From IMG/VR virus record IMGVR_UViG_3300027805_000032, positions 1 through 40,920 of that record: 40,920 bases of DNA; one strand, written 5' to 3'. Position numbers and translations under genes: made by a program. Shown piece after piece: positions 1 through 31,802 of the stretch. The notes beneath the pieces are model-generated. The model searched no databases. It was not told where the DNA came from and saw only the letters and a program-made list of their open reading frames with translations. This DNA is from a virus. The first letter of the stretch is position 1, and each line of letters starts with the position of its first letter.

Positions 1-126
1 GGTGAAGGCCGAGGCGATCTGCTTGTGAGTGCCAGACATATAGGCCTGGCTGTACTTCGCACCGTTGGTGAAGCCGGTCACGAGCACGCCCTTGAGGAGC
101 GTTTCCGTGAACGTGCGTTGCGTGCC
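1..126. repeat. Terminal direct repeat marking a circular contig (left copy)
   Basis: Bases 1-126 are identical to 40794-40919. Base 127 (g) differs from 40920 (a). The repeat lies wholly inside the major capsid gene and keeps its frame, so joining the ends restores one gene. A length near 127 is a common assembler k-mer overlap, so this is best read as a closed circular genome, not as a packaged terminal repeat. Confidence 0.93.
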
Positions 127-669
127 GTTCGAAGCAGCAGACACAACACCAGTCGATTGCCAGCCACCGGACGAGCCCGTAGCGCCGAGGCTGTCGTTCG
201 TGGCAACCCACGCCAGAGCGCCAGCGGTCTTCCGGGTCACGGACGCAGGCGTTTCAGCAACGGACGCTTTGTTGCCGATGAAGCGGGCTTCCATGTCGCG
301 GCGCAGTTCGATGCCGCGGATCATCTTCTGGTAGTCGAGTTCATCTGCACGGCCGGCGCGGTCCGAAGACATCACAGTGCCGGAGATAGACCCGTCCTTG
401 CGGAAGATCTGCGCATAGACGTTGCGGCGCACGGTCGTGTGAGCCGCCGTGTGCGTGCCAATGTCGTCGCCTTCATACTGCGCGTTATCCGCGTCAGGCG
501 AATCCAGCGTTTCGGTCTGCCACTCGTGCAGGATGTTCTTGACCTTCTGCTTCCCGATGTTGGAGCTGAAGGGGGTTTCTTCCGGTGCTACGCGATAGAT
601 GGTATCTTCGAGATCCTCACGCTCGCCAACGACAGCAGAGCGGACGAAAGTATTGGTTGGGACGGCCAT
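1..669 (-). CDS. Major capsid protein, SU10/DUF5309-like (N-terminal 223 codons, continues at the other contig end)
   Basis: The ATG at 667-669 starts an open frame that runs off the left edge. The N-terminus MAVPTNTFVRSAVVGERED, followed by a segment reading APEETPFSSNIGK, resembles the SU10-like (DUF5309) major capsid family. These proteins have the HK97 fold and build the icosahedral shell. The frame continues without a break at 40793 down to the stop at 40500, giving 223 + 97 = 320 residues, a normal size. It follows a scaffold-like gene (689-1717) and is followed by a hairpin terminator (40434-40457), as expected for the most abundant virion protein. Family assignment is from residue patterns only. 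Confidence 0.88.
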   Translation of the reverse strand, partial: MAVPTNTFVRSAVVGEREDLEDTIYRVAPEETPFSSNIGKQKVKNILHEWQTETLDSPDADNAQYEGDDIGTHTAAHTTVRRNVYAQIFRKDGSISGTVMSSDRAGRADELDYQKMIRGIELRRDMEARFIGNKASVAETPASVTRKTAGALAWVATNDSLGATGSSGGWQSTGVVSAASNGTQRTFTETLLKGVLVTGFTNGAKYSQAYMSGTHKQIASAFT

Positions 670-688
670 GGTCCTGTTTTCCTGATGA

Positions 689-1717
689 TTATCCTCGCTT
701 CAGCCGGCGCAATTCCATAGCCTGCTCGATCGTGAGCGATTTCATGGAGTTGAGCTGCTTGATGCGTGCTTCTGACGATGAAGCCCTGACGCCCTGGCCG
801 CTCGCGGGAGCGGTCGGGCCTGCTGGCTTCGGCTTGGGTTTGAGCGTTTCTTTGGCCTTCGCTTGCGCGCGGTCCCAAAGCATCGCCTTGAAAGCGATAC
901 GCGCTTCAATTGCAGAAATGCCTCGCACCTGCTCGAGCGGGATACCCAGCTCGCTCAGATAATTCGTCGTGTCCCTCATGCGTGCCGGACCCTCTTTCGG
1001 GTCGGCAAGCTCTGGAGCAACTTCCGGCAGGAGCTTGCGCTGTTCCTCCACATACGCATTGAACGTGACTGCGTCAGCCTGGGCCTTGTCGGCCTGGACC
1101 TTCTCGTAATCTCGTTTCTCACGGTCGTATCGGGCGAGTTCAGCGTTGTAGGCAGTCGGGTTGGTCTGCGCGAGCTCTTGTGCTGCGTGACTCCCTAGCC
1201 AGTTGTCCCAATCCTGCATGTAAGTGCTTTGGGCTTCGACGTATTCACCGATCCTCTCAGACGTCTCCATAAGCTGCCTGAGCTTGGCTTCGGAGTGCTT
1301 GGTCGTTTCGGCGGCTTTCTGCATGGCCTTGGCAACAGCGGCGGTTCGCTGCTTCTCGTACTCCACAACCTCTCTTTGTGAGGCGGGCGAGAGCTTGGCG
1401 AAGCGTTCCTTGCCTTCAGCATCCCAAAACTGAGGGGCCGCGATTGCCGTTTCCGGTTCGGGCGGGGCCTCATTGTCGTCTTCTGCGTTGGCCTCTTCAG
1501 GCTCGCCTTCGACGTCCTGATCCGCTTGGGTAAACGGATCGGATTCTGTGTCGGCTTCGACGGGCTCGCGCGCCTCTGTCTCTGCCTGTTCTTCAGGTTC
1601 GGGGTCTGAAACCCTCGTGGCGCCCTTGGCGCGCAATGTCTGCTGGTGCTTGACCGCTGCCTCAATAGACAGGGGGGCGCTTTCCGCCACAGGGGCGGGC
1701 GCTGTATCGAGATCCAT
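689..1717 (-). CDS. Putative scaffolding protein
   Basis: This 342-residue protein has a highly acidic, Pro/Glu/Asp-rich N-terminal third (about residues 37-95). A long charged helical region (about 95-265) rich in Lys, Glu and Ala follows, with a basic Pro/Lys linker and short C-terminal helix after that (KSLTIEQAMELRRLKRG). An acidic disordered head, helical body and basic tail immediately upstream of the capsid gene is the classic layout of a phage scaffold, which organises capsid subunits and leaves the procapsid. No protease motif is visible, so it probably exits intact or is cut by a host enzyme. The role is inferred from position and composition. Confidence 0.72.
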   Translation of the reverse strand: MDLDTAPAPVAESAPLSIEAAVKHQQTLRAKGATRVSDPEPEEQAETEAREPVEADTESDPFTQADQDVEGEPEEANAEDDNEAPPEPETAIAAPQFWDAEGKERFAKLSPASQREVVEYEKQRTAAVAKAMQKAAETTKHSEAKLRQLMETSERIGEYVEAQSTYMQDWDNWLGSHAAQELAQTNPTAYNAELARYDREKRDYEKVQADKAQADAVTFNAYVEEQRKLLPEVAPELADPKEGPARMRDTTNYLSELGIPLEQVRGISAIEARIAFKAMLWDRAQAKAKETLKPKPKPAGPTAPASGQGVRASSSEARIKQLNSMKSLTIEQAMELRRLKRG

Positions 1718-1731
1718 GATGTCCTCTGGGG

Positions 1732-1968
1732 TTAGTCCGCTGCCCGCCGAGTGGCGGCTTCGCGTTCAAGTTTACCAGTGTCTACGTAGCTGTTTAGCTG
1801 CCTGCGAACTTCCATCAGCGCACGGTAGGCAAGCAGCCCGTTCCATGCAGCGTCTGCGCTGGTCGCAGACAGCACCGTCCGCATGAGCTTGTGCTCAACG
1901 TCCTCGAAGGCGTCAGCCGTGACCTTGACGACTTCGTCAGCCCAGAATGCGCGCTCGCCGGGGGTCAT
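1732..1968 (-). CDS. Small helical protein between portal and scaffold genes
   Basis: This protein has 78 residues, is mostly helical by composition, and has no recognised motif. It starts MTPGERAFWADEVVKV. Its start overlaps the portal stop by 4 bases (ATGA), so it is translated as part of the head operon. Small genes at this position in SU10-like phages are usually unannotated. A head-assembly accessory role is only inferred from location. Confidence 0.75.
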   Translation of the reverse strand: MTPGERAFWADEVVKVTADAFEDVEHKLMRTVLSATSADAAWNGLLAYRALMEVRRQLNSYVDTGKLEREAATRRAAD

Positions 1969-4199
1969 TCCGCAAGGCTCCCACCGGGACGGAAGGTCTG
2001 GGCCTCACGTTGAACCTCGATCTTCTTCTCGTTGGAATGCAGCGCCGCCTGATGGTTGAGGTCGGCCTGATAGATCGCAAGCTCCTTCTCCTGCGCCATG
2101 CGGAGGATAGCCAACTCGCGCTCCTGCTGTAGCCGGATGATCCCAAGCTCGCGCTCGGAATCGAGCTTCATCTGCATCGCCTGCATCTCGGTCTGGGCCT
2201 TCTGGGCGTCGGCCTGCTGCTTCATCGCCAGTTCCGCCTGCCTGGCCTGCGTCGAAGCCTGAAGCTCCTGTTGCTTCATCTGGCCATTTGCCTGAAGCTC
2301 GGCTTGCTTAAGTTGGCCGTTCATCTGCATCTCGGCCTGCTTGGCCTGTGCTTCTGCCTGCACCTTCGCCATAGCCGGGTCAGGCTGGGGCTCCTGCGGC
2401 TCTGCTTCAGCCGGATTGCTCCAGAACTGTTCGGGGGCCTTGAACCCTGCCCGCTCGGTAAAGCGTTTGAGCAGGTTGTAGGCATTGTCACCCGTGACCA
2501 GAGGCCCAGACAATCCGCCCTGTATCGCCACGACATTCTGCTGGAACTGGAGCATCTTCTCCATGATCAACAGCTCTTGCTCCTTACCGCCAGAACCGAC
2601 GCCAACCTCAATCACCATGTCGGCGCGGTTGCCGAATGTGCTCGGATCGATGTCCACCGGAGGCTTTCCGTTCAGCCTGATCTTCTCAGAGCGCGTGTTA
2701 TGCGTGCGGCTTAGTGCGTGGATGTTCAGATACCAGTCCTTGACCAGCGTCTCAGCCAGCACGCGGGCAATCATGCGGACGCGCTTCTGGGCCATGCCCA
2801 TCAACGCCAGTGCGCCGCCCTTGGTATCATGCAGCGTGTCTGGATTGAGCCCCTGTGCGTTCCTCACAACGCCAGAGCGCTGTTCAGCCATCGTGGACAC
2901 GTATTCCAGCGCCATCTGGACGTCGAAGCCAAGCTGGCCGGCCGAGATTGGCGACACCGCGCCAGGCTTCTGGACCCGGATCGGCATGCCCGGCTCGTTA
3001 CGAAGCACGTCGTCCATCGTCTCATCAGAGGAGAAGTCTTTAGCCACCTCCACCCGCTGGTTCATGGCGAAATACCCGCTATCCAGCATCATCCGGACCA
3101 GCGCGGTCTTGATCTTCTGGATCTCGATGAGCTTGTCCGCGAGGGACTGGCCATAGAAGCGGTGCGTCTGGATAAAGGGCGTGCCAACCGCCAGTCCGAT
3201 CCGGTTCACCTTCCGCTTGTCGAGGATGATGTTAACCTGCTCATCCGTCTGGATGCGCCAGAGTTCGGTCTTGCCGTCCTGGTTGCCGTCGATCCTGACC
3301 CAGTGCTCAAGCACTTGCACCGTGCGGAGCAGCTTGTTGCTTGCCCCAGCGTTGCTTGTGTCGCTTTCATTGGCAAGGTCGCGTGACTGCTCGGTCTGCT
3401 CGTCGCCGCGGTTGGGATAGTCAGGCAGCTTCTCGACCAGCTTGGGATCGAAGCCCTGATCCATCAGGCTCTGAGCCCTCGGAAACGAGCGGACCACGCA
3501 ATAGGTGGCTTCGGAGATGTCCACCGTATCCGGGGCCACGCTCAGATTGTTGGGGTCGATCGCCGCGCATTTGATGCAGCCATCGTCGTAGCTCATCGAT
3601 GCCTTGACCTTGAACAGCTCCACGCCGTCAGGGCCAGCGCCCAGAGACTGCTTCTCGTCAATGGTGAAGCCATTCTGCTCCAGCATCATCATCTGCGGGG
3701 CGTTGATCCCGTCAAACGATTGCTCGTCGATGGCTTCCTTGTCCTCCCACCACGTTTTGAGGATGCCGGTGTCTACCTGCAACGCGTCCTTGATCGCCGT
3801 GTAGAGCAGACGCCAGCCGCGCAGCTTCCTGAACGCGACATACTTGACGTACTCAATCTCTTGCTTCGCGGCTTCCTCGTCCTCATTGCCTTGCGGATCG
3901 AAGCTGGCGACATCCTCACCGCCCGTGAAGATTTCCATGAGGTCGGGCAGCACCGTCTCGATCGCGTCAGCAACGTCCGTTGACGTGGCCTTCGATCGGT
4001 TGGGCAGGCTCAGGACGTCCTTCATCTCTCCCTTGGAATACTCAAGGGCCTGCCGGCGCTTCTTCTCAAGGTCGGTGCCGTTCTCGAAGCCAACCGAGTT
4101 GAGCTTCTCGGCTTGCAGGATCGAACACAGGTCCGCATCCGACAGCTTCATGTCGTCAGGCTTTTCAGCCTGCTCTGGCATACCTCCCGTGTATGCCAC
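1965..4199 (-). CDS. Portal protein, SU10-like
   Basis: This 744-residue protein matches the size and layout of the portal of SU10-like podoviruses, the dodecameric ring at the capsid vertex through which DNA is packaged and ejected. The N-terminal two thirds include a segment reading VETVLPDLMEIFTGGED-like (as AIETVLPDLMEIFTGGED), typical of these portals, and a conserved GLNPDTLHDTKGGA region. The last 150 residues are a long Gln/Ala/Glu/Lys-rich helix with repeats of the type KQAELQANGQMKQQEL, probably the barrel or an extended coiled coil. It abuts the terminase gene and overlaps the next small gene by 4 bases. Confidence 0.9.
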   Translation of the reverse strand: MAYTGGMPEQAEKPDDMKLSDADLCSILQAEKLNSVGFENGTDLEKKRRQALEYSKGEMKDVLSLPNRSKATSTDVADAIETVLPDLMEIFTGGEDVASFDPQGNEDEEAAKQEIEYVKYVAFRKLRGWRLLYTAIKDALQVDTGILKTWWEDKEAIDEQSFDGINAPQMMMLEQNGFTIDEKQSLGAGPDGVELFKVKASMSYDDGCIKCAAIDPNNLSVAPDTVDISEATYCVVRSFPRAQSLMDQGFDPKLVEKLPDYPNRGDEQTEQSRDLANESDTSNAGASNKLLRTVQVLEHWVRIDGNQDGKTELWRIQTDEQVNIILDKRKVNRIGLAVGTPFIQTHRFYGQSLADKLIEIQKIKTALVRMMLDSGYFAMNQRVEVAKDFSSDETMDDVLRNEPGMPIRVQKPGAVSPISAGQLGFDVQMALEYVSTMAEQRSGVVRNAQGLNPDTLHDTKGGALALMGMAQKRVRMIARVLAETLVKDWYLNIHALSRTHNTRSEKIRLNGKPPVDIDPSTFGNRADMVIEVGVGSGGKEQELLIMEKMLQFQQNVVAIQGGLSGPLVTGDNAYNLLKRFTERAGFKAPEQFWSNPAEAEPQEPQPDPAMAKVQAEAQAKQAEMQMNGQLKQAELQANGQMKQQELQASTQARQAELAMKQQADAQKAQTEMQAMQMKLDSERELGIIRLQQERELAILRMAQEKELAIYQADLNHQAALHSNEKKIEVQREAQTFRPGGSLAE

Positions 4200-5459
4200 C
4201 TAGACCGCTCCGAAGCTGGGAATGACGAGCTTGGGCGTGCTGGCCTTGGTCCGGCTATCCAGGCCCATAGCCAGATAGCGGAACGCATCTGCGGAATGGC
4301 TTGTCCAGTCGTGCAATGGCCGCTCCCTGAACACCTTGGTCTTTTCATCGAACTCGCGCCGGTACTGGCGCAGGCATTCGGTGCCGCGGTGCGTCTTGTC
4401 CTTGTCGAAATAACAACGGGGCAGGATGGTGCGGACAGCGTGGATGCCGTCCTCCACCGTCTGTTGAGGGATCACCTCAACCTTTACGCCCAGCGTCTCA
4501 AGCGTCTTCCTGCGCGTCTCACCCGTACCCAGCTCCCTCGCCTCCACATCGTGAGGCAGCAGGTGCTTGGCGTAACTGTAGGGCTTGGCGTCGAGCTTCT
4601 TGACGATCGACGGCAGCCCCTCGCCCGATATCTCCATATAGTCGATCAGGTGGATTTCACGCCCTGCGATCTGGATGAACCAGATGGCGGTTGCGTCATC
4701 GATACCCAGATCCCATGCCGTCCAGACCTTCTGCGTCGGCTGCCACGGGACATTGCGAACCCGCTTGTCCGCATCGATCAGGCGGAACTCTTCCGCATAG
4801 AACGCGCCTTGGATAGCGGCGTCGAACGAGCACTCGAACTCCTGGTCATACTGGTCGGCAGTCATGATAGCGCGTGCGTCACGCAATTCGGACTCAGGCA
4901 GCAGTTTGGTATCGGAGGCTTTGAACATGAACGCCTCCCACCCTTCAGCGCCTTTGGCGTACTCAAACAGCCGATGAAACTCGTTCCTGCCCTTGGGCGT
5001 GCCTATGAAGATCGCCCAGCCGCCACGGTCAGCCAGCGCCGGCCGGATAACCTCAATCCACGCCCGCGGGTCCATGTCTCCGAACTCATCGAGGATGACC
5101 CCGTCGAGATAGATCCCGCGAAGGGCGTCGTAGTTGTCAGCTCCGAACAATTGTATGCGGGCAGTGTTGGGCAGGTCAGCCCTGAGTTCCGCCTCGTTGA
5201 CTGTCGTGCCCGGTATCTTGAGCGTGTAGTCCTTGACGTAATCCCAGCTCGTCTGCTTGGCCTGCCTCAGGAGCGGAGCAATGTAGGCATAACGAGGCCT
5301 TGGCTTGTCGCACCGGAGCGCAGCGTCCACCGTGTCGGCAATGGCGCCTACGGTCTTGCCACCCCGTCTGTGAATGACAGCGACCCGGAAACGCGCTTTG
5401 GATTTGTGGAAGGTCTGTTGCCAGGGCCTCGGTCGATAGCCGAGGTCAACTGTCGTCAC
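4200..5459 (-). CDS. terL: Terminase large subunit (packaging ATPase-nuclease)
   Basis: This is a 419-residue terminase motor. The N-terminal ATPase has a Walker A of the phage type HRRGGKT (30-36), a Walker B ILDEF (D124, E125) and a coupling motif GTPKG (153-157). The C-terminal RNase H-like nuclease shows AWDLGIDDAT (D250), LPHD (D304) and HSADAFRYLAMG (D391), giving three acidic metal ligands. It translocates DNA into the procapsid through the portal and cuts the concatemer. Its start overlaps the end of the putative small terminase by 14 bases and its stop directly abuts the portal start. At 419 residues it is compact but complete. Confidence 0.95.
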   Translation of the reverse strand: MTTVDLGYRPRPWQQTFHKSKARFRVAVIHRRGGKTVGAIADTVDAALRCDKPRPRYAYIAPLLRQAKQTSWDYVKDYTLKIPGTTVNEAELRADLPNTARIQLFGADNYDALRGIYLDGVILDEFGDMDPRAWIEVIRPALADRGGWAIFIGTPKGRNEFHRLFEYAKGAEGWEAFMFKASDTKLLPESELRDARAIMTADQYDQEFECSFDAAIQGAFYAEEFRLIDADKRVRNVPWQPTQKVWTAWDLGIDDATAIWFIQIAGREIHLIDYMEISGEGLPSIVKKLDAKPYSYAKHLLPHDVEARELGTGETRRKTLETLGVKVEVIPQQTVEDGIHAVRTILPRCYFDKDKTHRGTECLRQYRREFDEKTKVFRERPLHDWTSHSADAFRYLAMGLDSRTKASTPKLVIPSFGAV

Positions 5460-5763
5460 GAGGCACCCCGGTAATCACCTGAATGCGGAGGTCGCCTCCA
5501 CCTTCACCCGTTACCTGCATCGGAAGCACCTTGCCCAACAGGCTTAGAAACGGACCGGGGTTTGCTACGGCCTGCTCTTGAAGGTATCCAGCCATCCCGC
5601 CTTTGCCCCCTGCCTTGGTAGCAGCAATGAGAATGGCGTCCTTCAGCAGCGCGGTCGTTTTATTGACTGCGCCGGGAGGACGACCCTTCCCCGCATTGGT
5701 CAGGTTCTCGGTTTTGCCAGTGCGTCTAGACGGTTTCTTTTTTACAGGATCAGCGTCGGCCAT
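5446..5763 (-). CDS. terS: Putative terminase small subunit
   Basis: This 105-residue protein lies directly upstream of, and overlaps, the large terminase gene. It has a basic N-terminus (KKKPSRRTGKTENLTNAGKGR) suitable for DNA contact. A conserved-looking core follows, with KGRPPGAVNKTTALLKDAI, then GGMAGYL and NPGPFLSLLGKVLP, a pattern seen in many small proteins preceding TerL. Small terminases recognise the packaging site. The function is inferred from position and pattern. A perfect 17-bp palindrome (5787-5803) lies 24 bases upstream of its start. Confidence 0.62.
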   Translation of the reverse strand: MADADPVKKKPSRRTGKTENLTNAGKGRPPGAVNKTTALLKDAILIAATKAGGKGGMAGYLQEQAVANPGPFLSLLGKVLPMQVTGEGGGDLRIQVITGVPRDDS

Positions 5764-5786
5764 GTTCGGCCCTCAGTTCATGCGAT

Positions 5787-5803
5787 CCTTACGTTACGTA
5801 AGG
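5787..5803. promoter_or_regulatory. Perfect 17-bp palindrome upstream of terS
   Basis: The sequence is CCTTACGT-T-ACGTAAGG, an 8-bp perfect inverted repeat around one base, in the 55-base gap between 5819 and 5763. The one-base centre makes an RNA hairpin unlikely, so a dimeric DNA-binding protein site is the natural reading: an operator or a terminase recognition element. No protein is assigned. Confidence 0.55.
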
Positions 5804-5818
5804 TTGTCGCGGTTTAGT

Positions 5819-6340
5819 CTAGCGCCACCAGATCGTAGCGGTTCCACTGAAGCCGAGAGCCGCGTCTCCCGATGCTGCCCAGCCGTCTGCGATGTTGAGG
5901 TAGATCGTGTGAGCAGCGGCGGCTTCGATTGCGAGGTTGGTTGTGACCGTCGCGTTCTCGACCGTGCCGTCGCAGTCGTTCATGGTCTGGCCGGTCATGA
6001 TGTTCTCGAACGTTGCGGTGCCGTCGAGGGTGGCGACAACTCCCGAGGCAATGACCGTGCCGAGGCCCATGTCAGGGGTGTCAGCCGTGACGTTGCCCTG
6101 CGTTTGCTTCACGGCGACCGAGATGTTGGAGCCCGTTACGATGCGAGGCCCGGCGGGAAGGGTCAGCAGCAGCTTGCCCACGCCAAGGGATGCGCCGCCA
6201 GCGATCACAGGGAACGCACCGTTGAGGGTAAGGACGGTCTTGTAGCCTTCCGGCGAGCCGGTCGTTTGGGACGTGACCCAAGAGCCAGGCAGGATGATGC
6301 CCGACTGGTCGTCGCGAAGCATTACGTTTTGACGTGCCAC
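5819..6340 (-). CDS. Predicted beta-rich virion protein
   Basis: This 173-residue protein is rich in Thr, Val, Ala and Gly with alternating hydrophobic patterns, and has no signal peptide or membrane segment. The composition (TLNGAFPVIAGGASLGVGK, then VTTNLAIEAAAAH) suggests a beta-sandwich such as a capsid decoration or fibre domain. It lies in a run of similar small genes between the late leader and the terminase. The exact role is unknown. It could equally be a head fibre or a tail accessory protein. Confidence 0.72.
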   Translation of the reverse strand: MARQNVMLRDDQSGIILPGSWVTSQTTGSPEGYKTVLTLNGAFPVIAGGASLGVGKLLLTLPAGPRIVTGSNISVAVKQTQGNVTADTPDMGLGTVIASGVVATLDGTATFENIMTGQTMNDCDGTVENATVTTNLAIEAAAAHTIYLNIADGWAASGDAALGFSGTATIWWR

Positions 6341-6369
6341 GTTGGATTCTCCTGATGGCTGTTGTTGGA

Positions 6370-6948
6370 TTACGTGGCTGAGAATGGATCTGCGACGTTC
6401 GAGCCGGTCGGGACGACAAGCGCGCCCTTGACCGCAAACACCGCCGAAGCAATGTCCACGAACTCGAGCCAGTCGCCAATCTGACCGCCCGTGGTCGTGC
6501 CGTTGAGCGTGATCTTGTCGTCCGTGCCAGAAGCGGCATAGGCGGTCGCGGCGTTGCTGTCGTTGTCCAGCATCATCACAACGCCCTTGATGGTATCGGT
6601 GCCGGCAGCCGCAACCACATGGTTGGACGTGTTCACAGCGCCCACCACGAACCGATAGACAGCGCCTGTGCCGGTTGCCGCGGGAAGCGTAACCGTAGAG
6701 GCTGCGCCCGTGTGGTTGAGGACGACAACCCGGCTCTCATGCAGGGCCGAGGTCACCGACAGGGACGTCGCTGCGAGCGATACAGGCCGCGCAGCAATGG
6801 CCGCGTTGCGGATCGCAATCTCGAGTTCCGCCCGCGTCATCTTCTTCGTGCCGGACGTGCCGGCCGATACGTCAACAACGGGGAAGACATCCCCCGTCGC
6901 ACTGTCCGCGCCCGTCAGGGCCGTTAGATCACTAATCTTCGTGCCCAT
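6370..6948 (-). CDS. Predicted fibre-like virion protein
   Basis: This protein has 192 residues. The N-terminus MGTKISDLTALTGADSATG followed by VVDVSAGTSGTKKMT is a short adhesion or trimerisation motif that recurs at the start of many phage tail- and head-fibre proteins. The rest (about residues 60-190) is Thr/Gly/Ala/Val-rich beta structure. It directly abuts the gene at 6949. It is probably a surface fibre or decoration protein, inferred from composition and the N-terminal motif. Confidence 0.72.
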   Translation of the reverse strand: MGTKISDLTALTGADSATGDVFPVVDVSAGTSGTKKMTRAELEIAIRNAAIAARPVSLAATSLSVTSALHESRVVVLNHTGAASTVTLPAATGTGAVYRFVVGAVNTSNHVVAAAGTDTIKGVVMMLDNDSNAATAYAASGTDDKITLNGTTTGGQIGDWLEFVDIASAVFAVKGALVVPTGSNVADPFSAT

Positions 6949-7329
6949 TTAGGCCTCCTGGAGAATGTATTCGTTGTTTTCAGTCACTAGGTCTTCTTCG
7001 GTTTCAGTCAGGAGGGAGAACGCTCCCTCAAAGACTGAGAACTCGTCTGCGAGGAAATCGCCTTCGAGGTAGGCGACCACGTCGCCGCTATCCTTGGTGC
7101 CGAGATTGAGCCGCAGCCTGAGAGGGGGCGCGTAATCATTTCCAGCGGTCCTGTGCGTGACACCGGCTGCCGTGATGGCGCTGCCCCATGTCACCCATGT
7201 CCCTTTGACAACCTCACGTTCAAGGGTGAGCGAGTTGCTGCCGCTCATGGACAGGATGACGTCGAAGCCCCCACGCAGGGCGTAGAATGGCTGCGACACG
7301 CCAGTCGCGCCGAAGGTCTTGAACAGCAT
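6949..7329 (-). CDS. Small virion-type protein, unknown function
   Basis: This 126-residue protein starts MLFKTFGATGVSQPFYALRG. It is beta-rich, with Trp and Gly turns (VKGTWVTWGSAITAAG) and an acidic C-terminus (TETEEDLVTENNEYILQEA). No family is recognised. It lies between two beta-rich virion candidates and behind a long GC-rich hairpin at 7351-7380. A structural or decoration role is plausible from context only. Confidence 0.68.
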   Translation of the reverse strand: MLFKTFGATGVSQPFYALRGGFDVILSMSGSNSLTLEREVVKGTWVTWGSAITAAGVTHRTAGNDYAPPLRLRLNLGTKDSGDVVAYLEGDFLADEFSVFEGAFSLLTETEEDLVTENNEYILQEA

Positions 7330-7350
7330 TTTGGGTCACCGTTTCAGTGA

Positions 7351-7380
7351 GGAGGCGCTGGTCTCAGCCAGCCGCCCTCC
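7351..7380 (-). terminator. GC-rich intergenic hairpin in the late operon
   Basis: The segment reading ggaggcgctgg...ccagccgccctcc folds into paired blocks of 3, 4 and 4 bp with two one-base bulges and a 6-base loop. It sits in the 55-base gap between the genes at 7385 and 7329. No T-tract follows on the minus strand, so it may be an attenuator, a processing site or a weak terminator. Confidence 0.4.
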
Positions 7381-7384
7381 CAGT

Positions 7385-7720
7385 TTAACTGGTTGCCGTT
7401 TCCGGCTGTCCGATCGTCACGGGCGCGGGCTTCACGGGCTGTTTCAGCTCGCCCATCGCCTGCCTTAGCTCGACCCATTCAACGCCAGGCATCAGCGGGA
7501 TAACCGGGAGCGGGCCTACGCGAGCGACAGGAACGTCGTAGATGGTCGCCAAAGCCTCGTAGCGCGCGATCTGGCGCTGTAGGGCCTTCATGGCGTCGGC
7601 GACCTGCGCGCGTGCGTAGGCGACCCTCTTGCGGCGTGCGAGACGCCATGCGCGCAGTACGGGATTGGCACGGGGTTGCCGTCCCCGGTTGGGGTTTTTG
7701 AAGCTGAGACGCTGGATCAT
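7385..7720 (-). CDS. Small basic protein, unknown function
   Basis: This 111-residue protein has a strongly basic N-terminal half (Arg/Lys/Gln-rich, RLSFKNPNRGRQPRANP, then a helix of RRKRVAYARAQVADAMK) and a Pro/Val-rich C-terminal half. The basic helix suggests nucleic acid or membrane-surface contact. Its start lies 3 bases from the stop of the upstream gene. No family is recognised. Confidence 0.68.
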   Translation of the reverse strand: MIQRLSFKNPNRGRQPRANPVLRAWRLARRKRVAYARAQVADAMKALQRQIARYEALATIYDVPVARVGPLPVIPLMPGVEWVELRQAMGELKQPVKPAPVTIGQPETATS

Positions 7721-7723
7721 GAC

Positions 7724-8308
7724 CTACCGCTTCAGTGTCGCCTTGCGCGGGGCAGCGCGGGGCGGCGGGGTTGTGGATGGCGCGGGCGCTGCGGACGCTA
7801 CCTTCAGACGGGGCGCAACTGCTTCGGTGCGCTTGGGCGGGCTGGTAATGTCGGACCACGCTTCCTTGATAGGGCGGCGGGCGTCCAGCTTGAGCGTTGG
7901 CTGGCGGTTGACCTCGACAATGACCTCGCGAATACCGCTCTCCCCGGCAATGCGGTGTCCCACCCACGGGCGGATTACAACCGTATTGCCAGTGATCAGG
8001 GCCTTTGCGTCAGGCCAGTGATCTGTGACCTGGATTTGCAGGCCGGGGTGGATTTCTGCGTATTCGCGGGCGATGGCGTGGCGGGCCAGTTCCTCCAGAT
8101 GCGCCTCGGCTTCCTCGACGGGCATGGAAGCGACGTTCACGCCTTTGACCGCTTTGATGACGGCCTGACGGACCTTCTCGTCCGTCCACTCATTAGCCCT
8201 GACGATGCCGATCGGCTCAAGGCGCGTCTTGCTGAAGAACCATGCGCCGATCGCGACCGCAAAGGCCAAAGCAATGAGAATTAGGGCGTAGTCGCCTACG
8301 TTGAGCAT
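7724..8308 (-). CDS. Membrane-anchored protein, first gene of the late operon
   Basis: This protein has 194 residues. One N-terminal membrane segment (about residues 8-25, YALILIALAFAVAIGAWFF) is followed by a soluble alpha/beta domain (about 30-140) with mixed charge, and then an Ala/Pro/Lys/Arg-rich tail. It would face one side of the inner membrane, with topology unclear. It is the first gene after the structured leader behind the NusG-like gene, and its ribosome-binding region lies inside a perfect hairpin (8309-8324). No family is recognised. Confidence 0.72.
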   Translation of the reverse strand: MLNVGDYALILIALAFAVAIGAWFFSKTRLEPIGIVRANEWTDEKVRQAVIKAVKGVNVASMPVEEAEAHLEELARHAIAREYAEIHPGLQIQVTDHWPDAKALITGNTVVIRPWVGHRIAGESGIREVIVEVNRQPTLKLDARRPIKEAWSDITSPPKRTEAVAPRLKVASAAPAPSTTPPPRAAPRKATLKR

Positions 8309-8324
8309 GGAGAGCCCCCTCTCC
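8309..8324 (-). promoter_or_regulatory. Hairpin directly before the first late start codon, containing the Shine-Dalgarno
   Basis: In the transcript sense this reads GGAGAG-GGGG-CTCTCC and is followed immediately by ATG (8306-8308). The purine-rich arm and loop are the only Shine-Dalgarno-like sequence, so a folded stem would hide it. This could be translational control or a target for a regulatory factor. Confidence 0.55.
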
Positions 8325-8499
8325 GATTTCGGGCAAGACTTAGGATAAGGTCATTCTGCATGACCTGCTCGCAGGACGCTCGGCCTTAGCCTACTCGCAG
8401 GGAAACACCTGCGTATGTCCCGGTCGCCATTGACGGATTCCAGCCCCATCGAACAGCCCGCGCATATTGTGGTGCTTTGCGGGAAGACACAACCCCTAG
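8325..8499 (-). promoter_or_regulatory. Structured late-operon leader (gene-free 190-base gap, 8309-8499)
   Basis: No gene is seen here. There are three further perfect stems: GGTCAT/ATGACC (8349-8365, loop 5), CCTGC/GCAGG (8364-8375, loop 2) and CGCAGG/CCTGCG (8396-8413, loop 6). The octamer CTCGCAGG occurs twice (8368-8375 and 8394-8401). A weak promoter-like pair (TTGTGT, 17 bases, CAATAT, minus strand, about 8464-8493) lies upstream. It sits between the NusG-like gene and the late genes, where lambda has Q and its target. A promoter plus antitermination leader is therefore inferred. Confidence 0.5.
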
Positions 8500-9018
8500 C
8501 TATGCCGCTTCAGACTTGTAGCACTTGCTCACGGGGAACCTGACCTCGGCTGATACCGAGTTGAACATGACGAGGTCGAAGATGGCCTCGTGTTTTTGGA
8601 TATCACGGACCCGAAGCTCAAACCCCTCAAATGCCGGGTCGTCGATGCGGACCATGTCCCCGATCTCGAAAGGCGTGCCGCGGAAGAACCGGAAATAGTC
8701 GGGCAGGTTCTCCTCGGGAAGGTCCAGAAACGCGCCTAGCGCCTCTGGATTGAGCCGCACGGGGCGTCCCTCTAGGGATACTACGCTTCGGATCATGTGG
8801 CAGCGGTGAACCTCCCTCCACGGACTGCCGTCAGTGCCGACAAAAACGTACCCAGGCGCTGCAACGGCTTCCCGCTCCTTTCGCTTGCCGTTTGTCCACC
8901 TGCCAAACTTGCGCTCGGTCTTCGTGAACGCCTTCAAGCCGCGATAGATCAGGTGCTTGCGAACCATCGCCTCCCGTTGCGGGAGCGTGCGAAGGGCATA
9001 CCATGCCAGTTCTGTCAT
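8500..9018 (-). CDS. NusG/RfaH-family transcription elongation (antitermination) protein
   Basis: This protein has 172 residues. The NGN domain (about 4-95) shows the family marks WYALRTLPQREAMVRKHL, a PGYVFVG strand and IRSVVSLEGRPVRL. A KOW-like C-terminal domain (about 116-165) starts FEIGDMVRIDDPAFEGFELR. NusG paralogues bind the RNA polymerase clamp and suppress pausing or termination. It is the last gene of the leftward early operon, overlapping the preceding microprotein by 4 bases (ATGA). A hairpin-rich leader and the 29-kb late operon follow. That is the position of a Q-type late antiterminator, and this role is inferred from context. It is too divergent and too well embedded to be a stray host nusG. 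Confidence 0.85.
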   Translation of the reverse strand: MTELAWYALRTLPQREAMVRKHLIYRGLKAFTKTERKFGRWTNGKRKEREAVAAPGYVFVGTDGSPWREVHRCHMIRSVVSLEGRPVRLNPEALGAFLDLPEENLPDYFRFFRGTPFEIGDMVRIDDPAFEGFELRVRDIQKHEAIFDLVMFNSVSAEVRFPVSKCYKSEAA

Positions 9019-20928: not shown

Positions 20929-21124
20929 CGGTATTCTCCGAAATGTTTGAGATGACTTCACGCTCGACCTCCGCGGCTTCCTTGTCGCGCCGATCGTTCA
21001 CTTCCTTCCGCGCCCTTGCCTTCTCCTGCTGGACATAGGTGAAGCCCACGAGCACGCCGGCCACCACGAGCCAGACCCAGCCTGGAACCTTCTTGAGAAA
21101 TTCCCAGATTGTTGCGAGGATCAA
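20825..21124 (-). CDS. i-spanin (inner membrane component)
   Basis: This protein has 99 residues from a TTG at 21122-21124 that overlaps the endolysin stop (TTGA). A longer upstream reading lies inside the endolysin gene and is rejected. One membrane segment (about 13-30, VPGWVWLVVAGVLVGFTY) is followed by a charged coiled-coil periplasmic domain (QQEKARARKEVNDRRDKEA and on). This is the Rz-like partner of the o-spanin encoded within its 3' end. Confidence 0.8.
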   Translation of the reverse strand: MILATIWEFLKKVPGWVWLVVAGVLVGFTYVQQEKARARKEVNDRRDKEAAEVEREVISNISENTDEVVREADAVRSHPSASVLPNQTGATLSDPHYRD

Positions 21125-22293
21125 TGCAGCGCCCTCTTTGCTTTCGCCCTGCCCCAGCTCTGGACAAGTTCGCCGGCAATCATGACGCCAAAGCCGCCGA
21201 TGAATTCCATCACGAGCGGATCTGACACCGCGCCGAGGAATGCGTTGGAGCCCGTCTTGAGCATCCACAGACGCCCCGCCATGATGAGCACGAGGCCGTA
21301 GAAGCGCCTGCTCTGCCACATCGCTTTCGTGCCGTTGCTCCACTCCTCAGAGCGCTTTGCGCCATCCACCGCGCTCGTCTGCTGGCCGATTGGCACGGGC
21401 GGATCAGGCAGGCGCGGAAGCTTTGGAGCCTGAGAGGGAAGAACAACGGGAGCAGGCGCCGGTCCAACCGCAGAAGGCTGGGGAGCCACAGGTTTCGTTG
21501 GCTGGACCGGCACCGCTTCCGCTTGACCACTCACAGTGGCGGAAGGCTTTTCGATAACGGAGGCAGCGCCAGCGGCAGGCGTCCGGGCAGGGTCGGCCTG
21601 CCGCTGTGCCGCCTCGTCCGCTTGGGGCGGCGAAGGCGCGGGGGTGTCGAGCGAAAGCAGCGGATAGCGCTGGGCGATGACCAGCACGTCCTTGAAGGGC
21701 GTCTTGAACAGCACCTTGTCCGTGCCGATCAGATCAACGGGACGCTCAACCTTGATGCGGATAAAGTCGTCATCGCACGCGTCTTCGAACTGGTAGCCCA
21801 TCCACAAGCAAGCTTCGGCGTACCTGCGTCTCAGCAATCCTCTGAGCGCACGCTTGTGCTGGCCCGACGTCGCGTAAATCCACATACCGAAAGAGTCGGC
21901 AGCGTCATCGTAGAGGCGGGCGTTGACGTACTTGAGAAGCGTCGATCCAGCTAGGCCTTTGATCCCGCAGTTGAACGCGAAACACGTCAACGCCGAGAAC
22001 TGGTTCGAGTTCAGCTCGACCGTTACCAGTTCACGGACGGCAACCTCGTACTCGACAAGCTGCTCTGTCAGTAGCTCGCGCGCCTGGACTTCATCACGCA
22101 GGCGATCGGTCGGCGCGATGTCGCGGCCATCGAACCACTTCGTGCAGCCGTAACCGATGGTCAGTTTGTCGCCGGGGCAGACGTAGGGCTCAAGCGCTGC
22201 GCCGTTTTCCGAGAGCGCGACAGACGGATCGCCCTTCTCGAAATACGTGAGCAGATCGAGGCCGTGAACGTTCAGCCGGTGATGATCGTTCAC
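21121..22293 (-). CDS. GH24 endolysin with C-terminal membrane domain
   Basis: This protein has 390 residues from a GTG at 22291-22293 that overlaps the Hsp70 stop (GTGA). A GTG 12 bases upstream is possible. The GH24 lysozyme domain (about 10-160) shows E19 (LLTYFEKGD) and PYVCPGDKLTIGYGC (C39, T45). The E-to-Cys distance is about 11 residues longer than in lambdoid lysozymes. A Pro/Ala-rich linker (about 215-320) leads to two hydrophobic segments (about 328-375, FYGLVLIMAGRLWML and EFIGGFGVMIAGELV). It cuts the peptidoglycan backbone. The membrane end may tether it or act as a pinholin-like element. Confidence 0.88.
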   Translation of the reverse strand: MNDHHRLNVHGLDLLTYFEKGDPSVALSENGAALEPYVCPGDKLTIGYGCTKWFDGRDIAPTDRLRDEVQARELLTEQLVEYEVAVRELVTVELNSNQFSALTCFAFNCGIKGLAGSTLLKYVNARLYDDAADSFGMWIYATSGQHKRALRGLLRRRYAEACLWMGYQFEDACDDDFIRIKVERPVDLIGTDKVLFKTPFKDVLVIAQRYPLLSLDTPAPSPPQADEAAQRQADPARTPAAGAASVIEKPSATVSGQAEAVPVQPTKPVAPQPSAVGPAPAPVVLPSQAPKLPRLPDPPVPIGQQTSAVDGAKRSEEWSNGTKAMWQSRRFYGLVLIMAGRLWMLKTGSNAFLGAVSDPLVMEFIGGFGVMIAGELVQSWGRAKAKRALH

Positions 22294-23813
22294 GCTGAGC
22301 CCCACTCGATTTCGCCGACACGACCATACGCCTCGCCGCGGCTGTTGAGGCCGACCGTGAACGGCACACGCGCTGCGCGCGGTTCGCCTGGCTCAAGCGG
22401 CACGTTGATGCTGTGAAGCAGCTCACAGGAAGCGGCGCGGTCATGGTCGCCTGCCACGATGCGTACAGGCATGACGCTCTGGCCCGGCTCGCGGTTCGTG
22501 AGGAAGAACGCCGCTTCCTTCTCACTCGGATATGGCGTGCCACGGGGGATGATGACGGACGCCACGCCCTCGACCTTGTCGTATACCTCGATGGCGACGT
22601 TGTAGGCAAGGATGTCCTGTACCGTCAGATCGGACTTCCGGCCCTCAAGCACAGCGGCACGGATCGCAGCGCCAAGCGCCACGGCAATCTCGCAGTCGAT
22701 GTCGGTTTTTGCCTCTTGCCCGAACACATCGCGCGCCATCGCTTGCACGGCCGGCATCCGGCTTCCACCCCCGACGAGGACCACGTCGTTCAGGTCACGC
22801 CTAGCTGAGAAATTGGCGTCCTTCCGCGTAGCCTCCGCGATGGCGACGAGGCAGGCAGCGCGCATCCGCTTGAGCAGGTCTTGCGAGAGATGTTCAAGCA
22901 GCGGACGATCTACAATGTAGTCCATGTGGAGGTCCGTCCCGCCCGGCGAGCGGTCGAAATCCTTGATGCGGAACTCCGATTTGACTTTGCGAGAGAGGCG
23001 CTTCTTCACGTCCTCTGCTTCCTGAAGAACAAGGCTCATTGCGGTGTCATCGACGGCAAGGTCGCTGCCCTCGTGATCCGTCGCCCACTTGTTGACGATG
23101 TATCGGCCTAGAATGGCATCCACATCAGACCCGCCCGTGATGGACGAGCCGCCTGTACCGAGCACAGTGACGAGGCCAGAGCCTGTCTGGATGATCGACA
23201 CATCCGTCGTGCCGCCACCCACATCGAGGACGGCAATCCGACGGACCTTTTTGAAATCGTAGCCATAGGCCAAAGCCGCCGCAGTCGGCTCGTCCATCAG
23301 TTCGACATAGGCAAGACCAGCCGTGCGGCCTGCTTCCTCGACGGCTTTGCGCTGTGACGGGGAGAACGTCGCCGGCACGCAGATCACCGCGCCATCCGGC
23401 TTTTCGCCCTTGAACTTCGCCGTTGCTGCATCAAGCAGTTTAGCAATGAGCATCGAGCAAATTTCGACGGGGCTATAGGTGTGGCCGTCTGGCCCCTGAT
23501 AGTGCAGGCTGCCATCAGGACCGGCGACCGTCTGGTAGCCCTGATCCTCGTCCGGGTGGAACATCTCGCCCAGCTTGCGCTTCGCCAGCCTGAAGCAGAA
23601 ATCGGGGAAACGCTTGCCCGCCTCAATGCCGTCAAGGCCCACGAATATCTGGCTCTCGCCCGCTGCCACTGCATCGGCAGGGACGATGGTGACAACGCTG
23701 GGCATGAGCGGCGAGCCATCGACGGAGATGACTTCCGACACGCGCCCGTTGTACCAGGCGATGCTGCTGTTGCTTGATCCGAGATCGATTCCGGCCACGC
23801 GAGAAAGTTTCAT
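22290..23813 (-). CDS. Phage-encoded Hsp70 (DnaK-like) chaperone, lidless
   Basis: This protein has 507 residues, against about 610-640 for DnaK. The nucleotide-binding domain (1-390) is intact: GIDLGSSNSS (phosphate 1, DnaK DLGTTNS), LAKRKLGE (catalytic Lys region, about 77-83), VPATFSPSQRKAVEEAG (146-162), DEPTAAALAYG (174-184), DVGGGTTDVSI (197-207) and VLVGGGSRMP (345-354). The interdomain linker is degenerate (DLTVQDILAYNVAIEV against VLLLDVTPLSLG), the substrate-binding beta domain is short (about 110 residues) and the helical lid is absent. It is coupled by 4-base overlaps to a multi-pass membrane protein upstream and to the endolysin downstream. It is probably an ATP-driven assembly or lysis factor. 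No DnaJ or GrpE partner is encoded. Confidence 0.93.
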   Translation of the reverse strand: MKLSRVAGIDLGSSNSSIAWYNGRVSEVISVDGSPLMPSVVTIVPADAVAAGESQIFVGLDGIEAGKRFPDFCFRLAKRKLGEMFHPDEDQGYQTVAGPDGSLHYQGPDGHTYSPVEICSMLIAKLLDAATAKFKGEKPDGAVICVPATFSPSQRKAVEEAGRTAGLAYVELMDEPTAAALAYGYDFKKVRRIAVLDVGGGTTDVSIIQTGSGLVTVLGTGGSSITGGSDVDAILGRYIVNKWATDHEGSDLAVDDTAMSLVLQEAEDVKKRLSRKVKSEFRIKDFDRSPGGTDLHMDYIVDRPLLEHLSQDLLKRMRAACLVAIAEATRKDANFSARRDLNDVVLVGGGSRMPAVQAMARDVFGQEAKTDIDCEIAVALGAAIRAAVLEGRKSDLTVQDILAYNVAIEVYDKVEGVASVIIPRGTPYPSEKEAAFFLTNREPGQSVMPVRIVAGDHDRAASCELLHSINVPLEPGEPRAARVPFTVGLNSRGEAYGRVGEIEWGSA

Positions 23814-25069
23814 TCTGCGGCAACTTTCGCGGCAAGAGTTGCATCAAGGGTTGCATCGAGGGTTGAGACAGGACCAATCACGAGCAGGCGCTCGGCTTTG
23901 TCCGCACGACGCTGATGCTGGGCTGCAAGACCGCCCTGACGCGCCGCGCGCTGCTGGTCCGTCATCTCAACCGGCTCGACCAGCACCAGCGGTTCTGGCT
24001 CTTGCAAGGCCACTGGTGCGGGTTCTGGCTCTGGGGCGGGGATGGGAGCCGGGGAAGGCTCAACCGCTACAGGCGCAGCAGCTACAGGCTCAGGCGGGGC
24101 TGAGTAAGCAGCAACCGTCGCGTTCGTCTCAGCGATGATCCGCGCCCGCTCCTGCTGGTGACGCAACGCTGCGAGTTCATCGGTCCAGTCCCGATCACGT
24201 TGCGCCTCGGTCGAGCTGATGTCTGTGATGTAGGCCCAGAGCGAAAGCGACCGCGCGCCCTCGAGCACGCACAGCATAAGGATCAGCCAGATGCCTGCCC
24301 AGAACGCCGCGTTAGCCGCATCGGCCTGCTGGATCTGAAGCAAGCGCCGGTCAGATGTAGCCTGCTGAACCGGGCTCGCCTGCCCCTGCATCAGCCCGTC
24401 TTCACGCGCTCTGAGGGTCGCCAGTTCGCCTTGGATAGCCTCGCCGCGCGCACGCATGGCGCTCTCGGTCTTGTCTTGCCTGATGCCGTCCACGCTGCCG
24501 AAATAGAGCCCTTGGGCAAGCAGGAGGCTTTGAGCCTTGCTGATACCCTCTGGCGACATCGATGCCATTACGGTCTGTTCGGTGCGAAGCTCTGCGATCT
24601 GCGTCCTGACGCGCTCCAGTTCTGCGCCGGTCCCGCTGATCGCCGCCTGCTGCGCTACACCCAACGTTGCTGCCTCCTCGCCGGCTAGTGCTGCCTTGGC
24701 TTCAAGCGAGGACGAGCTCTCGGCAAAGCGTTCCGGCCAGACCACCTTTGCGCCGTTTTCGGCGTTGTGGACGCCCACGGCTGCGAGGCCCAAGAAGATG
24801 AAAGCGCCCGCCACTTTGCGCGCCATCGTCGATGCGGTCAGCATCCGGATAAATGCCACCGTCGCGAGCAGTTCAGCGCCGAGGACCGCGAAAACCAGCG
24901 CGATGATGGGCAGCGCGGAAAGCAATGACCAGTTGGCAGTCGCCACAACGCCGGTGACGCTCAGAGATGCGAGGCCAAGCGTGATGATGACGACAGCGAA
25001 CAGCGCAAACTTGCGCGTGGCGTCGGCTTCGTTCTTGAACTCCAAGAACGAGTTGAGAAACTTGTTCAT
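23810..25069 (-). CDS. Multi-pass membrane protein with peptidoglycan-binding-like motif
   Basis: This protein has 419 residues. Three hydrophobic segments lie in the first 100 (about 21-43, 50-75, 86-100) and a fourth at about 256-272. Between segments 3 and 4 is a coiled-coil loop holding SKAQSLLLAQGLYFGSVDGI (about 177-196), then TESAM. This resembles the PG_binding_1 repeat (L..GYY.G.vDG...T..A). The C-terminal third is Pro/Glu/Val-rich (PEPEPAPVALQEPEPLVL). It is coupled to the Hsp70 gene. It could be an inner-membrane assembly or lysis-timing protein whose tail recruits the Hsp70. This is inference. Confidence 0.8.
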   Translation of the reverse strand: MNKFLNSFLEFKNEADATRKFALFAVVIITLGLASLSVTGVVATANWSLLSALPIIALVFAVLGAELLATVAFIRMLTASTMARKVAGAFIFLGLAAVGVHNAENGAKVVWPERFAESSSSLEAKAALAGEEAATLGVAQQAAISGTGAELERVRTQIAELRTEQTVMASMSPEGISKAQSLLLAQGLYFGSVDGIRQDKTESAMRARGEAIQGELATLRAREDGLMQGQASPVQQATSDRRLLQIQQADAANAAFWAGIWLILMLCVLEGARSLSLWAYITDISSTEAQRDRDWTDELAALRHQQERARIIAETNATVAAYSAPPEPVAAAPVAVEPSPAPIPAPEPEPAPVALQEPEPLVLVEPVEMTDQQRAARQGGLAAQHQRRADKAERLLVIGPVSTLDATLDATLAAKVAAE

Positions 25070-25088
25070 GCCCTGCCCCTGTGTTGCG

Positions 25089-25517
25089 CTAAGCGCGTTC
25101 AGTGATCCAGAAGATCAGCAGCGCACTCAGGATGGTCAGCGCAAAGCCGACAACGTAGCGGATGAACTCCTGCCGTGTGCGCTTGCCTTCCTCCGCCGCG
25201 CGCTCGTGCTGATGCAGAAGCATCATCTCGACACGGGCAATGATGGCCGCTGACTGCTGATCGTTCGCAGTCTTCACCAGGTCAGAAACGCCGTTCATTG
25301 CGTCACGCAATGCCTTCTCCCATTCTCGCTTCAGTTCTTTCAGGTCTTCGCCCGAAACCGATCGCGCAAGCTCTTTCAGGAACGTGTCGAACGCCGCCTC
25401 AAAGCGCGTCCTCAGAACCGCCAGATCGCGCTCCGCGTTGCCGATGCGATCAAGGCGCGCAAACGCATCGCGCTGCCGCTCGATCTCTGCGATCTCGCGA
25501 TGAGATATCTCGGTCAT
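25089..25517 (-). CDS. Coiled-coil protein with C-terminal membrane anchor
   Basis: This protein has 142 residues. A long charged coiled coil (about 5-110, EIERQRDAFARLDRI ... ELKREWEKALRDAMNGV) precedes one C-terminal membrane segment (about 121-138, YVVGFALTILSALLIFW). A tail-anchored layout would place the coiled coil in the cytoplasm, where it could contact the neighbouring membrane protein or Hsp70. It lies 19 bases upstream of the 419-residue gene. No family is recognised. Confidence 0.75.
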   Translation of the reverse strand: MTEISHREIAEIERQRDAFARLDRIGNAERDLAVLRTRFEAAFDTFLKELARSVSGEDLKELKREWEKALRDAMNGVSDLVKTANDQQSAAIIARVEMMLLHQHERAAEEGKRTRQEFIRYVVGFALTILSALLIFWITERA

Positions 25518-25540
25518 TGCCCGCCCCGTAGCTCAGTCCC

Positions 25541-25954
25541 TCAGTCGCCACGACGCGTCAGCAGCCCCAGCAGACGGTCGATCGATGCCTCACGCGGATT
25601 GGCCTGGTCTGTCAGCATGTGCTCGCGACGAAGTCGTGCCTTCTCGACGTTCAGTTGCTCGCTGAGATGACGCTGGCGTGTCGATGACAGAACCTGGATG
25701 ACCGCTGTGGCCTCCGCCTCGTCCTGCTCGAAAGCGTCAAGCAGATCGTCGCCAGTTATGTCGTCATAGCCATCGCCGATTTGCCCGTAGTCCGCCATCA
25801 GCGCATCAGGCGCGGGGAGGAGCGGAGCGGGTTCAGGCTCTGGAACATCGCCCCAGAGCGCGTGCTCGACCATGTCCGTGAGCTGCGCATTGGTCAGCCC
25901 GCGGCGTCGGCTCAGGAGCCATTCGCGAGGCGACAAGTTGAGCTGTGTTTTCAT
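25541..25954 (-). CDS. Acidic soluble protein heading the Hsp70/lysis block
   Basis: This protein has 137 residues. The N-terminus MKTQLNLSPREWLLSRRRGL is followed by NAQLTDMVEHALWGD. An acidic Pro-rich middle and a basic helical C-terminal third (RQRHLSEQLNVEKARLRREH) follow. There is no membrane segment. It is the first gene after the divergent gap with the plus-strand membrane gene. It could be a cytoplasmic partner of the membrane proteins downstream; the function is unknown. Confidence 0.72.
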   Translation of the reverse strand: MKTQLNLSPREWLLSRRRGLTNAQLTDMVEHALWGDVPEPEPAPLLPAPDALMADYGQIGDGYDDITGDDLLDAFEQDEAEATAVIQVLSSTRQRHLSEQLNVEKARLRREHMLTDQANPREASIDRLLGLLTRRGD

Positions 25955-25998
25955 GATGTTCTGAAACTCCCGGCTTGCGCGAGGGCTGTTGGGTCGCG

Positions 25999-26014
25999 TT
26001 AACGAATGTGTTAA
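25999..26014. promoter_or_regulatory. Inverted repeat in the divergent gap before the moron-like gene
   Basis: TTAAC-GAATGT-GTTAA, a perfect 5-bp inverted repeat in the 87-base gap (25955-26041) between divergent start codons. It looks like an operator for the plus-strand membrane gene or for the block starting at 25954. GGAG lies 11 bases before the ATG at 26042. Confidence 0.5.
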
Positions 26015-26041
26015 GGTCTGCGCCTGATTTGGAGACGCGGG

Positions 26042-31716: not shown

Positions 31717-31732
31717 GGCGATTAGTCCTTGC

Positions 31733-31748: not shown

Positions 31749-31802
31749 TACGAAAAGGGATATGCTGCGATGAATCAGTTGGGAGGCTACAGCGCGGTCT
31801 GC

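What the first reader, a model, noticed from the sequence alone, without database searches (positions are those of the whole stretch)
8309..9018. NusG-like protein as a Q-type late regulator with a hairpin-rich target leader
The last early gene is a NusG/RfaH homologue (NGN plus KOW). The next 190 bases hold no gene but four perfect stems and a repeated CTCGCAGG octamer, and then a 29-kb late operon begins. RfaH-type paralogues are recruited by specific DNA/RNA elements, so the phage may encode both factor and target. This would be a lambda-Q analogue built from a NusG paralogue.
Basis: partly seen in the sequence, partly recalled or inferred. Interest (0 to 1): 0.68.

Follow-up and report, generated by a model that had tools for sequence, protein, structure and literature searches.

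The report
Phage NusG paralogue with cognate leader RNA
This phage appears to switch on its late genes with its own version of the bacterial transcription factor NusG plus a matching folded RNA at the start of the late operon; the same gene-plus-RNA arrangement recurs in about a hundred other phages, usually just before a transcription stop signal, and I found no published description of it.

Summary
In detail: a NusG-family gene (8500-9018, minus strand) is the last early gene. A 191-base gap with hairpins and two CTCGCAGG octamers follows, then a ~28-kb late operon that crosses the record's joined ends. In this sequence alone the hairpins and octamer are near chance. Comparison makes the case. 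The leader is conserved in eight related contigs with compensatory changes in three helices (three-way junction plus hairpin). It recombines together with nusG, not with the first late gene or the terminase/portal. More distant nusG phages (41-47% identity) carry a different structured leader in the same place. Three unrelated isolates (Agrobacterium Rivra, Sinorhizobium phi3LM21, Nostoc Nsp-JY10) and ~100 prophages have nusG, then another conserved RNA, then usually an intrinsic terminator, then terminase. Searching by that RNA found nusG directly upstream in 75 of 75 testable cases. Best explanation: a phage NusG paralogue recruited by a nascent-RNA element as processive antiterminator of the late operon. 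It works like LoaP and sits where lambda Q sits. Not shown: any biochemistry, RNA binding, or the promoter; the window's own leader has no intrinsic terminator. The octamer itself is not conserved. Neither RNA class is in Rfam.

The parts
8500..9018 (-). nusG-like gene (NGN + KOW), last gene of the early/replication operon; proposed antitermination factor
8487..8492 (-). putative -35 element TTGTGT (TTG kept in all 13 leaders; TTGACG in L004, L036, L038)
   Evidence: not significant in any one sequence
8464..8469 (-). putative -10 element CAATAT, 17 bases after the -35
   Evidence: weak
8335..8465 (-). class A leader RNA element; the only copy in the genome
   Evidence: covariance model R2, 139 bits
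8372..8422 (-). three-way junction: closing helix 8417-8422/8372-8377, helix 2 8409-8413/8396-8400, helix 3 8389-8391/8382-8384
   Evidence: compensatory changes in helices 2 and 3
8348..8366 (-). third hairpin, arms AGGTCAT/ATGACCT around a 5-base loop; its stem is re-paired in L028 and L029/L030/L033
8368..8375 (+). octamer CTCGCAGG, copy 1 (on the RNA: 3' arm of the closing helix plus GCGAG)
   Evidence: only the GCGAG core is conserved
8394..8401 (+). octamer CTCGCAGG, copy 2 (on the RNA: 3' arm of helix 2 plus AG)
8309..8324 (-). GGAGAG/CTCTCC hairpin at the ribosome-binding site of the first late gene
   Evidence: similar GGGAG...CTCCC motif before the start codon in relatives
1..8308 (-). 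first part of the late operon: small genes, TerL 4200-5459, SU10-type portal 1965-4199, scaffold-like 689-1717, capsid
21121..40920 (-). rest of the late operon across the joined ends, ending with endolysin 21121-22305
40432..40459 (-). 12-bp stem then ATCTTTTC just after the capsid gene: possible intra-operon terminator
   Evidence: relatives keep a strong hairpin here but mostly without the T-run

Best explanation
The phage encodes a specialised NusG paralogue as its last early gene. Transcription entering the late operon, probably from a promoter just after nusG, first makes a ~130-nt structured leader RNA. The paralogue is loaded onto the elongating RNA polymerase at this nascent RNA and stays bound, making it resistant to termination so that it can cross the ~28-kb late operon. 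Shown by sequence: the gene's family, its position, the conserved and covarying RNA, and the joint inheritance of RNA and gene. Inferred: that this protein binds this RNA, that the effect is antitermination, and that host RNA polymerase is the machine.
For: (1) NusG-family protein at the early/late boundary. (2) Leader conserved in eight relatives (73-90% identical for those read in full); 98.8% of cells paired over 19 pairs, covariation score 0.234 against 0.143 shuffled (0/500) and at most 0.102 when slid. (3) Cassette behaviour: L029 and L030 share nusG 98% and leader 91% but first late gene only 37%; window and L029 share nusG 62%, leader 73%, late gene 83%. The L003 contig (nusG 88%, leader 90%) has no similar TerL or portal, while L013 (portal 82%) has a different leader and nusG 47%. 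(4) The leader stays next to the late operon even where an ORF is inserted between nusG and leader (L004, L013). (5) The arrangement nusG - structured RNA - terminase recurs with nusG of 24-36% identity in isolates Rivra, phi3LM21, Nsp-JY10 and ~100 prophages. RNA-first search: nusG upstream 75/75; intrinsic terminator within 130 nt 59/77 against 4/363 random; TerL 1-2 kb downstream 58/67. (6) LoaP, a NusG paralogue, is known to need a leader RNA hairpin for read-through (PMC12691694). (7) L015, a relative without nusG, has at the same place an unrelated ORF, a promoter-like TTGACG...CAATTT and its best terminator.
Against: No experiment. The window's own leader lacks an intrinsic terminator, so its target would have to be Rho, pausing or terminators inside the operon (candidate at 40459). 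Promoter matches are weak. Only nine class A sequences, not independent; most paired positions do not vary. Joint inheritance could partly be physical linkage. The class A, B and R RNAs do not detect each other, so extension from class R, which has terminators, to this phage rests on shared arrangement. The structural model is of moderate confidence (pLDDT 72, pTM 0.50).
Confidence: 0.63

Rival explanations
1. The leader is a cis-acting RNA (like HK022 put) that modifies RNA polymerase by itself; the nusG-like gene is a neighbour with some other role.
For: Structured RNA close behind a promoter-like site; put RNA needs no phage protein (PMC9378689, abstract).
Against: 75/75 class R elements have nusG directly upstream. 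RNA class changes together with the nusG clade. Unrelated phages keep the pair.
Confidence: 0.12
2. The leader regulates translation or stability of the first late gene (riboswitch-like or protein-bound 5' UTR), or autoregulates nusG as a 3' element.
For: The ribosome-binding site lies in a small hairpin (8309-8324).
Against: The first late gene is replaced (30-37% identity) while leader and nusG stay. In class R a terminator lies between element and first late gene.
Confidence: 0.1
3. The gap is a DNA packaging site (cos/pac) or origin whose hairpins are DNA features.
For: Lies upstream of the terminase genes.
Against: The leader is kept with a quite different TerL and portal (L003) and not kept with an 82% identical portal (L013). 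TerL is about 2.8 kb away. Helices tolerate compensatory changes including G-U.
Confidence: 0.04
4. RfaH-type DNA recruitment: the protein reads a DNA element in the non-template strand and the RNA folds are incidental.
For: NusG-family relative RfaH works this way; some single-stranded leader stretches are highly conserved (ACCGGGACAT, GAGTAGG).
Against: Compensatory base changes show selection on pairing. RfaH itself recognises a small hairpin in the non-template DNA (PMC5995543, abstract), so this cannot be fully excluded.
Confidence: 0.15

Closest known systems
LoaP (Bacillus velezensis) with the dfn/mln leader hairpin
   Same: NusG paralogue encoded next to its target; needs a leader RNA hairpin; promotes read-through across a long operon (PMC12691694).
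   Different: Here phage-encoded; target is a three-way junction plus hairpin, not one UNCG hairpin; the protein scores far below the LoaP cut-off (17 against 125 bits).
RfaH / ops
   Same: Specialised NusG paralogue for long operons.
   Different: CTD predicted as beta-barrel; far below the RfaH cut-off; no ops element tested or seen.
Lambda Q at pR'-tR'
   Same: Factor is the last early gene; target at the start of the late operon; class R has a terminator just after the target.
   Different: Protein unrelated to Q; RNA rather than DNA target proposed; window leader has no intrinsic terminator.
Lambda N / nut and HK022 put
   Same: Promoter-proximal RNA element for processive antitermination.
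   Different: N is a small disordered protein acting on early operons; put acts without a phage protein.
NusG-annotated genes of Agrobacterium phage Rivra (gp65), Sinorhizobium phi3LM21 (p27), Nostoc phage Nsp-JY10
   Same: Same position before the terminase operon; followed by a conserved RNA element.
   Different: 24-36% identity; class R RNA with intrinsic terminator; annotated only as antitermination protein, with no RNA noted.

Membership tests
NusG/Spt5 family | NGN domain plus KOW domain | tested here: met
   Pfam NusG E 1.6e-10; profile over full length to 2lq8; Foldseek hits to NusG/RfaH
Housekeeping NusG (TIGR00922) | Score above equivalog cut-off 135.7 bits | tested here: not met
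   31.9 bits
RfaH (TIGR01955) | Score above cut-off 144.5 bits | tested here: not met
   21.3 bits
RfaH (TIGR01955) | CTD as alpha-helical hairpin in the free state | tested here: inconclusive
   Model shows a beta-barrel CTD, moderate confidence
LoaP (NF033641) | Score above cut-off 125 bits | tested here: not met
   17.4 bits; Rivra homologue 38.3
LoaP (NF033641) | Structured RNA in the leader of the target operon | tested here: met
LoaP (NF033641) | Direct binding of the protein to the leader RNA | not testable with these tools
   needs biochemistry
UpxY (NF033644) | Score above cut-off 100 bits | tested here: not met
   45 bits, the best of the named subfamilies
Lambda Q-type late antitermination | Regulator gene directly before the late operon | tested here: met
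   window, Rivra, phi3LM21, Nsp-JY10, ~100 prophages
Lambda Q-type late antitermination | Late promoter followed by a terminator | tested here: inconclusive
   promoter weak; terminator absent from the window leader but present in class R and in L015
Lambda Q-type late antitermination | Q protein family | tested here: not met
   the only Pfam hit is NusG
Known RNA families (Rfam 15) | Match to any family | tested here: not met

The most novel reading that the evidence does not exclude
A widespread, undescribed kind of phage late-gene switch in which a phage NusG paralogue and one of several unrelated structured leader RNAs (at least classes A, B and R) form cognate pairs that replace lambda Q and its target.
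Probability: 0.58. Interest if true: 0.78.

Novelty: new variant of a known kind. Interest (0 to 1): 0.68.

Why it matters
Phage late switches are known from only a few systems (Q, N/nut, put, p7, phage sigma factors). Here a universal elongation factor family appears to have been turned into a late-gene switch, with RNA targets not in Rfam, across many phages. It gives ~100 natural factor-RNA pairs in which to study how NusG paralogues choose RNA targets, and a candidate function for PHROG 6386.

Tried and rejected
Single-sequence statistics on the leader (stems, octamer, folding energy) were weak and are not used as evidence. The octamer as a recruitment signal was rejected: not conserved in L028-L033. 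Rfam: nothing. Consensus promoter scan: none found; the constrained -35/-10 reading is not significant alone. Genome collection scans with the window's NusG: no relatives. INPHARED with the window's protein: nothing at E 1e-5, only Rivra and two weak hits at E 1. Covariance models of class A and class R do not find each other, so a common RNA ancestor is not claimed. A capsid-gene terminator as the universal target was not upheld: relatives keep the hairpin, mostly without the T-run. Literature searches found no description of a phage NusG with a leader RNA; subscription papers are mostly not held.

Full report
OBSERVATION. The window is a 40,920-base virus record. Its two ends repeat the same ~126 bases apart from the last base, and relatives run across the joint, so it can be read as circular. 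On the minus strand the replication-type genes (a primosomal-like protein, a methyltransferase, RusA) end with ORF 8500-9018. This is a 172-aa NusG-family protein. A 191-base gap follows, then a late operon that runs from 8308 to 1 and on from 40920 to the endolysin gene at 21121, about 28 kb. An integrase, an Erf-like annealing protein and a YqaJ exonuclease lie on the plus strand, so the phage is probably temperate. The stems and the repeated octamer are present, but in this sequence alone they are close to chance.

THE LEADER IS A REAL RNA ELEMENT. Profile scans found contigs whose nusG is 41-89% identical. Relatives with nusG 61-89% identical, plus a ninth leader at a contig end (L006), carry the same leader (class A). 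The nine sequences support a three-way junction and a following hairpin: 98.8% of cells are paired, 11 cells are changed on both sides, and the covariation score is 0.234 against 0.143 in shuffles (0/500) and at most 0.102 in slid controls. A covariance model finds exactly one copy in the window, at 8335-8465. Relatives with nusG at 41-47% have other leaders in the same place: a four-helix class B in L034, L036, L037 and L038 (its third and fourth helices are poor in L038), and another sequence in L013. No relative that keeps the gene, and whose downstream DNA is present, lacks a leader; L031 ends at the gene.

LEADER AND GENE TRAVEL TOGETHER. L029 and L030 share nusG at 98% and leader at 91%, but their first late genes at only 37%. 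The window and L029 share nusG at 62%, leader at 73% and the late gene at 83%. L034 and L029 share the late gene at 80% but nusG at only 42%, and their leaders are of different class. The L003 contig, with nusG at 88% and leader at 90%, has no similar TerL or portal, whereas L013, with portal at 82%, has a different leader. In L004 and L013 an extra ORF lies between nusG and leader, and the leader stays with the late operon. This argues against a packaging site and against regulation of the first late gene.

THE ARRANGEMENT IS GENERAL. Three sequenced isolates carry a nusG-like gene at the same place: Agrobacterium phage Rivra, Sinorhizobium phage phi3LM21 and Nostoc phage Nsp-JY10. Behind each lies another conserved RNA element (class R), followed by a terminator-like hairpin. 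A profile of these three proteins found 34 loci in viral contigs, all with class R elements behind the gene. A search started from the RNA instead gave 79 further loci, partly from the same contigs: nusG directly upstream in 75 of the 75 that hold enough sequence (motif 90-153 bases after the stop codon), and an intrinsic terminator within 130 bases in 59 of 77, against 4 of 363 random places. TerL follows 1-2 kb downstream in 58 of 67 loci with 4 kb or more of downstream sequence. Class R helices covary strongly (score 0.250 against 0.122 shuffled, 0/500). Neither class is in Rfam 15. Class A and class R models do not detect each other, so the arrangement is shared but common ancestry of the RNAs is not shown.

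MECHANISM. The best reading is processive antitermination: the phage NusG paralogue is loaded on the elongation complex at the nascent leader RNA and stays on through the late operon. Class R, with a terminator 9-27 bases beyond the element in most cases, is the clearest form. In the window the leader holds no intrinsic terminator, so the barrier there may be Rho, pausing, or a terminator inside the operon such as the 12-bp stem with ATCTTTTC at 40459 after the capsid gene. A late promoter (TTG, 17-18 bases, then an A+T-rich hexamer) is plausible in all 13 leaders but weak statistically. AlphaFold2 gives NGN plus a five-stranded KOW barrel (pLDDT 72, pTM 0.50), closest to NusG in Foldseek. The protein scores well below the NCBI cut-offs for NusG, RfaH, LoaP and UpxY, so it belongs to none of these named subfamilies.

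A NATURAL REPLACEMENT. L015 has a portal 75% identical to the window's but no NusG match. At the same place it has a 188-aa ORF without any family match, then TTGACG-17-CAATTT, then the strongest terminator of the contig. This looks like a different late antiterminator in the slot where the window has nusG. It supports the slot's function without proving it.

KNOWN AND NEW. LoaP needs a leader RNA hairpin and promotes read-through (PMC12691694). RfaH reads an ops hairpin in the non-template DNA (PMC5995543). Reviews of NusG paralogues that I searched do not mention phage-encoded ones with leader RNAs, and other literature searches found none. I therefore rate it a new variant of a known kind: RNA-recruited NusG paralogues, here used as phage late-gene switches.

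LIMITS. All functional claims are inferred from sequence. Class A rests on nine related sequences. Several numbers come from my own scripts, in which the terminator definition is strict and misses some hairpins with interrupted T-runs.

Noticed in passing
L015:1590-2220: 188-aa ORF without Pfam, PHROG or NCBIfam match, followed by TTGACG-17-CAATTT and a 10-bp stem with TTTTGCTTTT, at the place where the window has nusG: a candidate unknown Q-type antiterminator with promoter and terminator.
   Followed up: partly
L046:9628-9717, L044:15574-15669 and ~100 prophage loci (L048-L190): Class R RNA (CCCUGACAG..CAYCGAYUCAGGGYCAGUGCnnnAGCUAUG) between phage nusG and an intrinsic terminator; not in Rfam. 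Further hairpins appear to lie between nusG and this core.
   Followed up: partly
window 8309-8329; L013:2726 and 3205; L002:691; L034: A repeated start-site motif CAAAATCGGGGAG-(C)-GCCCC-ATG or similar: Shine-Dalgarno inside a small palindrome, twice in L013. Possible shared translational control of late genes.
   Followed up: no
L004:1227-1840 and L013:1960-2543: Different ORFs (methyltransferase-like; HNH-like, judged by eye only) inserted between nusG and leader, leaving both intact.
   Followed up: no
window 1-126 and 40795-40919: The record's ends repeat apart from the final base, although IMG/VR lists no end repeats; the capsid gene is split by the record ends.
   Followed up: partly
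L034, L036, L037, L038 (class B leaders): Class B leaders share an almost invariant loop GCCGACUYUG, a possible protein-binding site.
   Followed up: no
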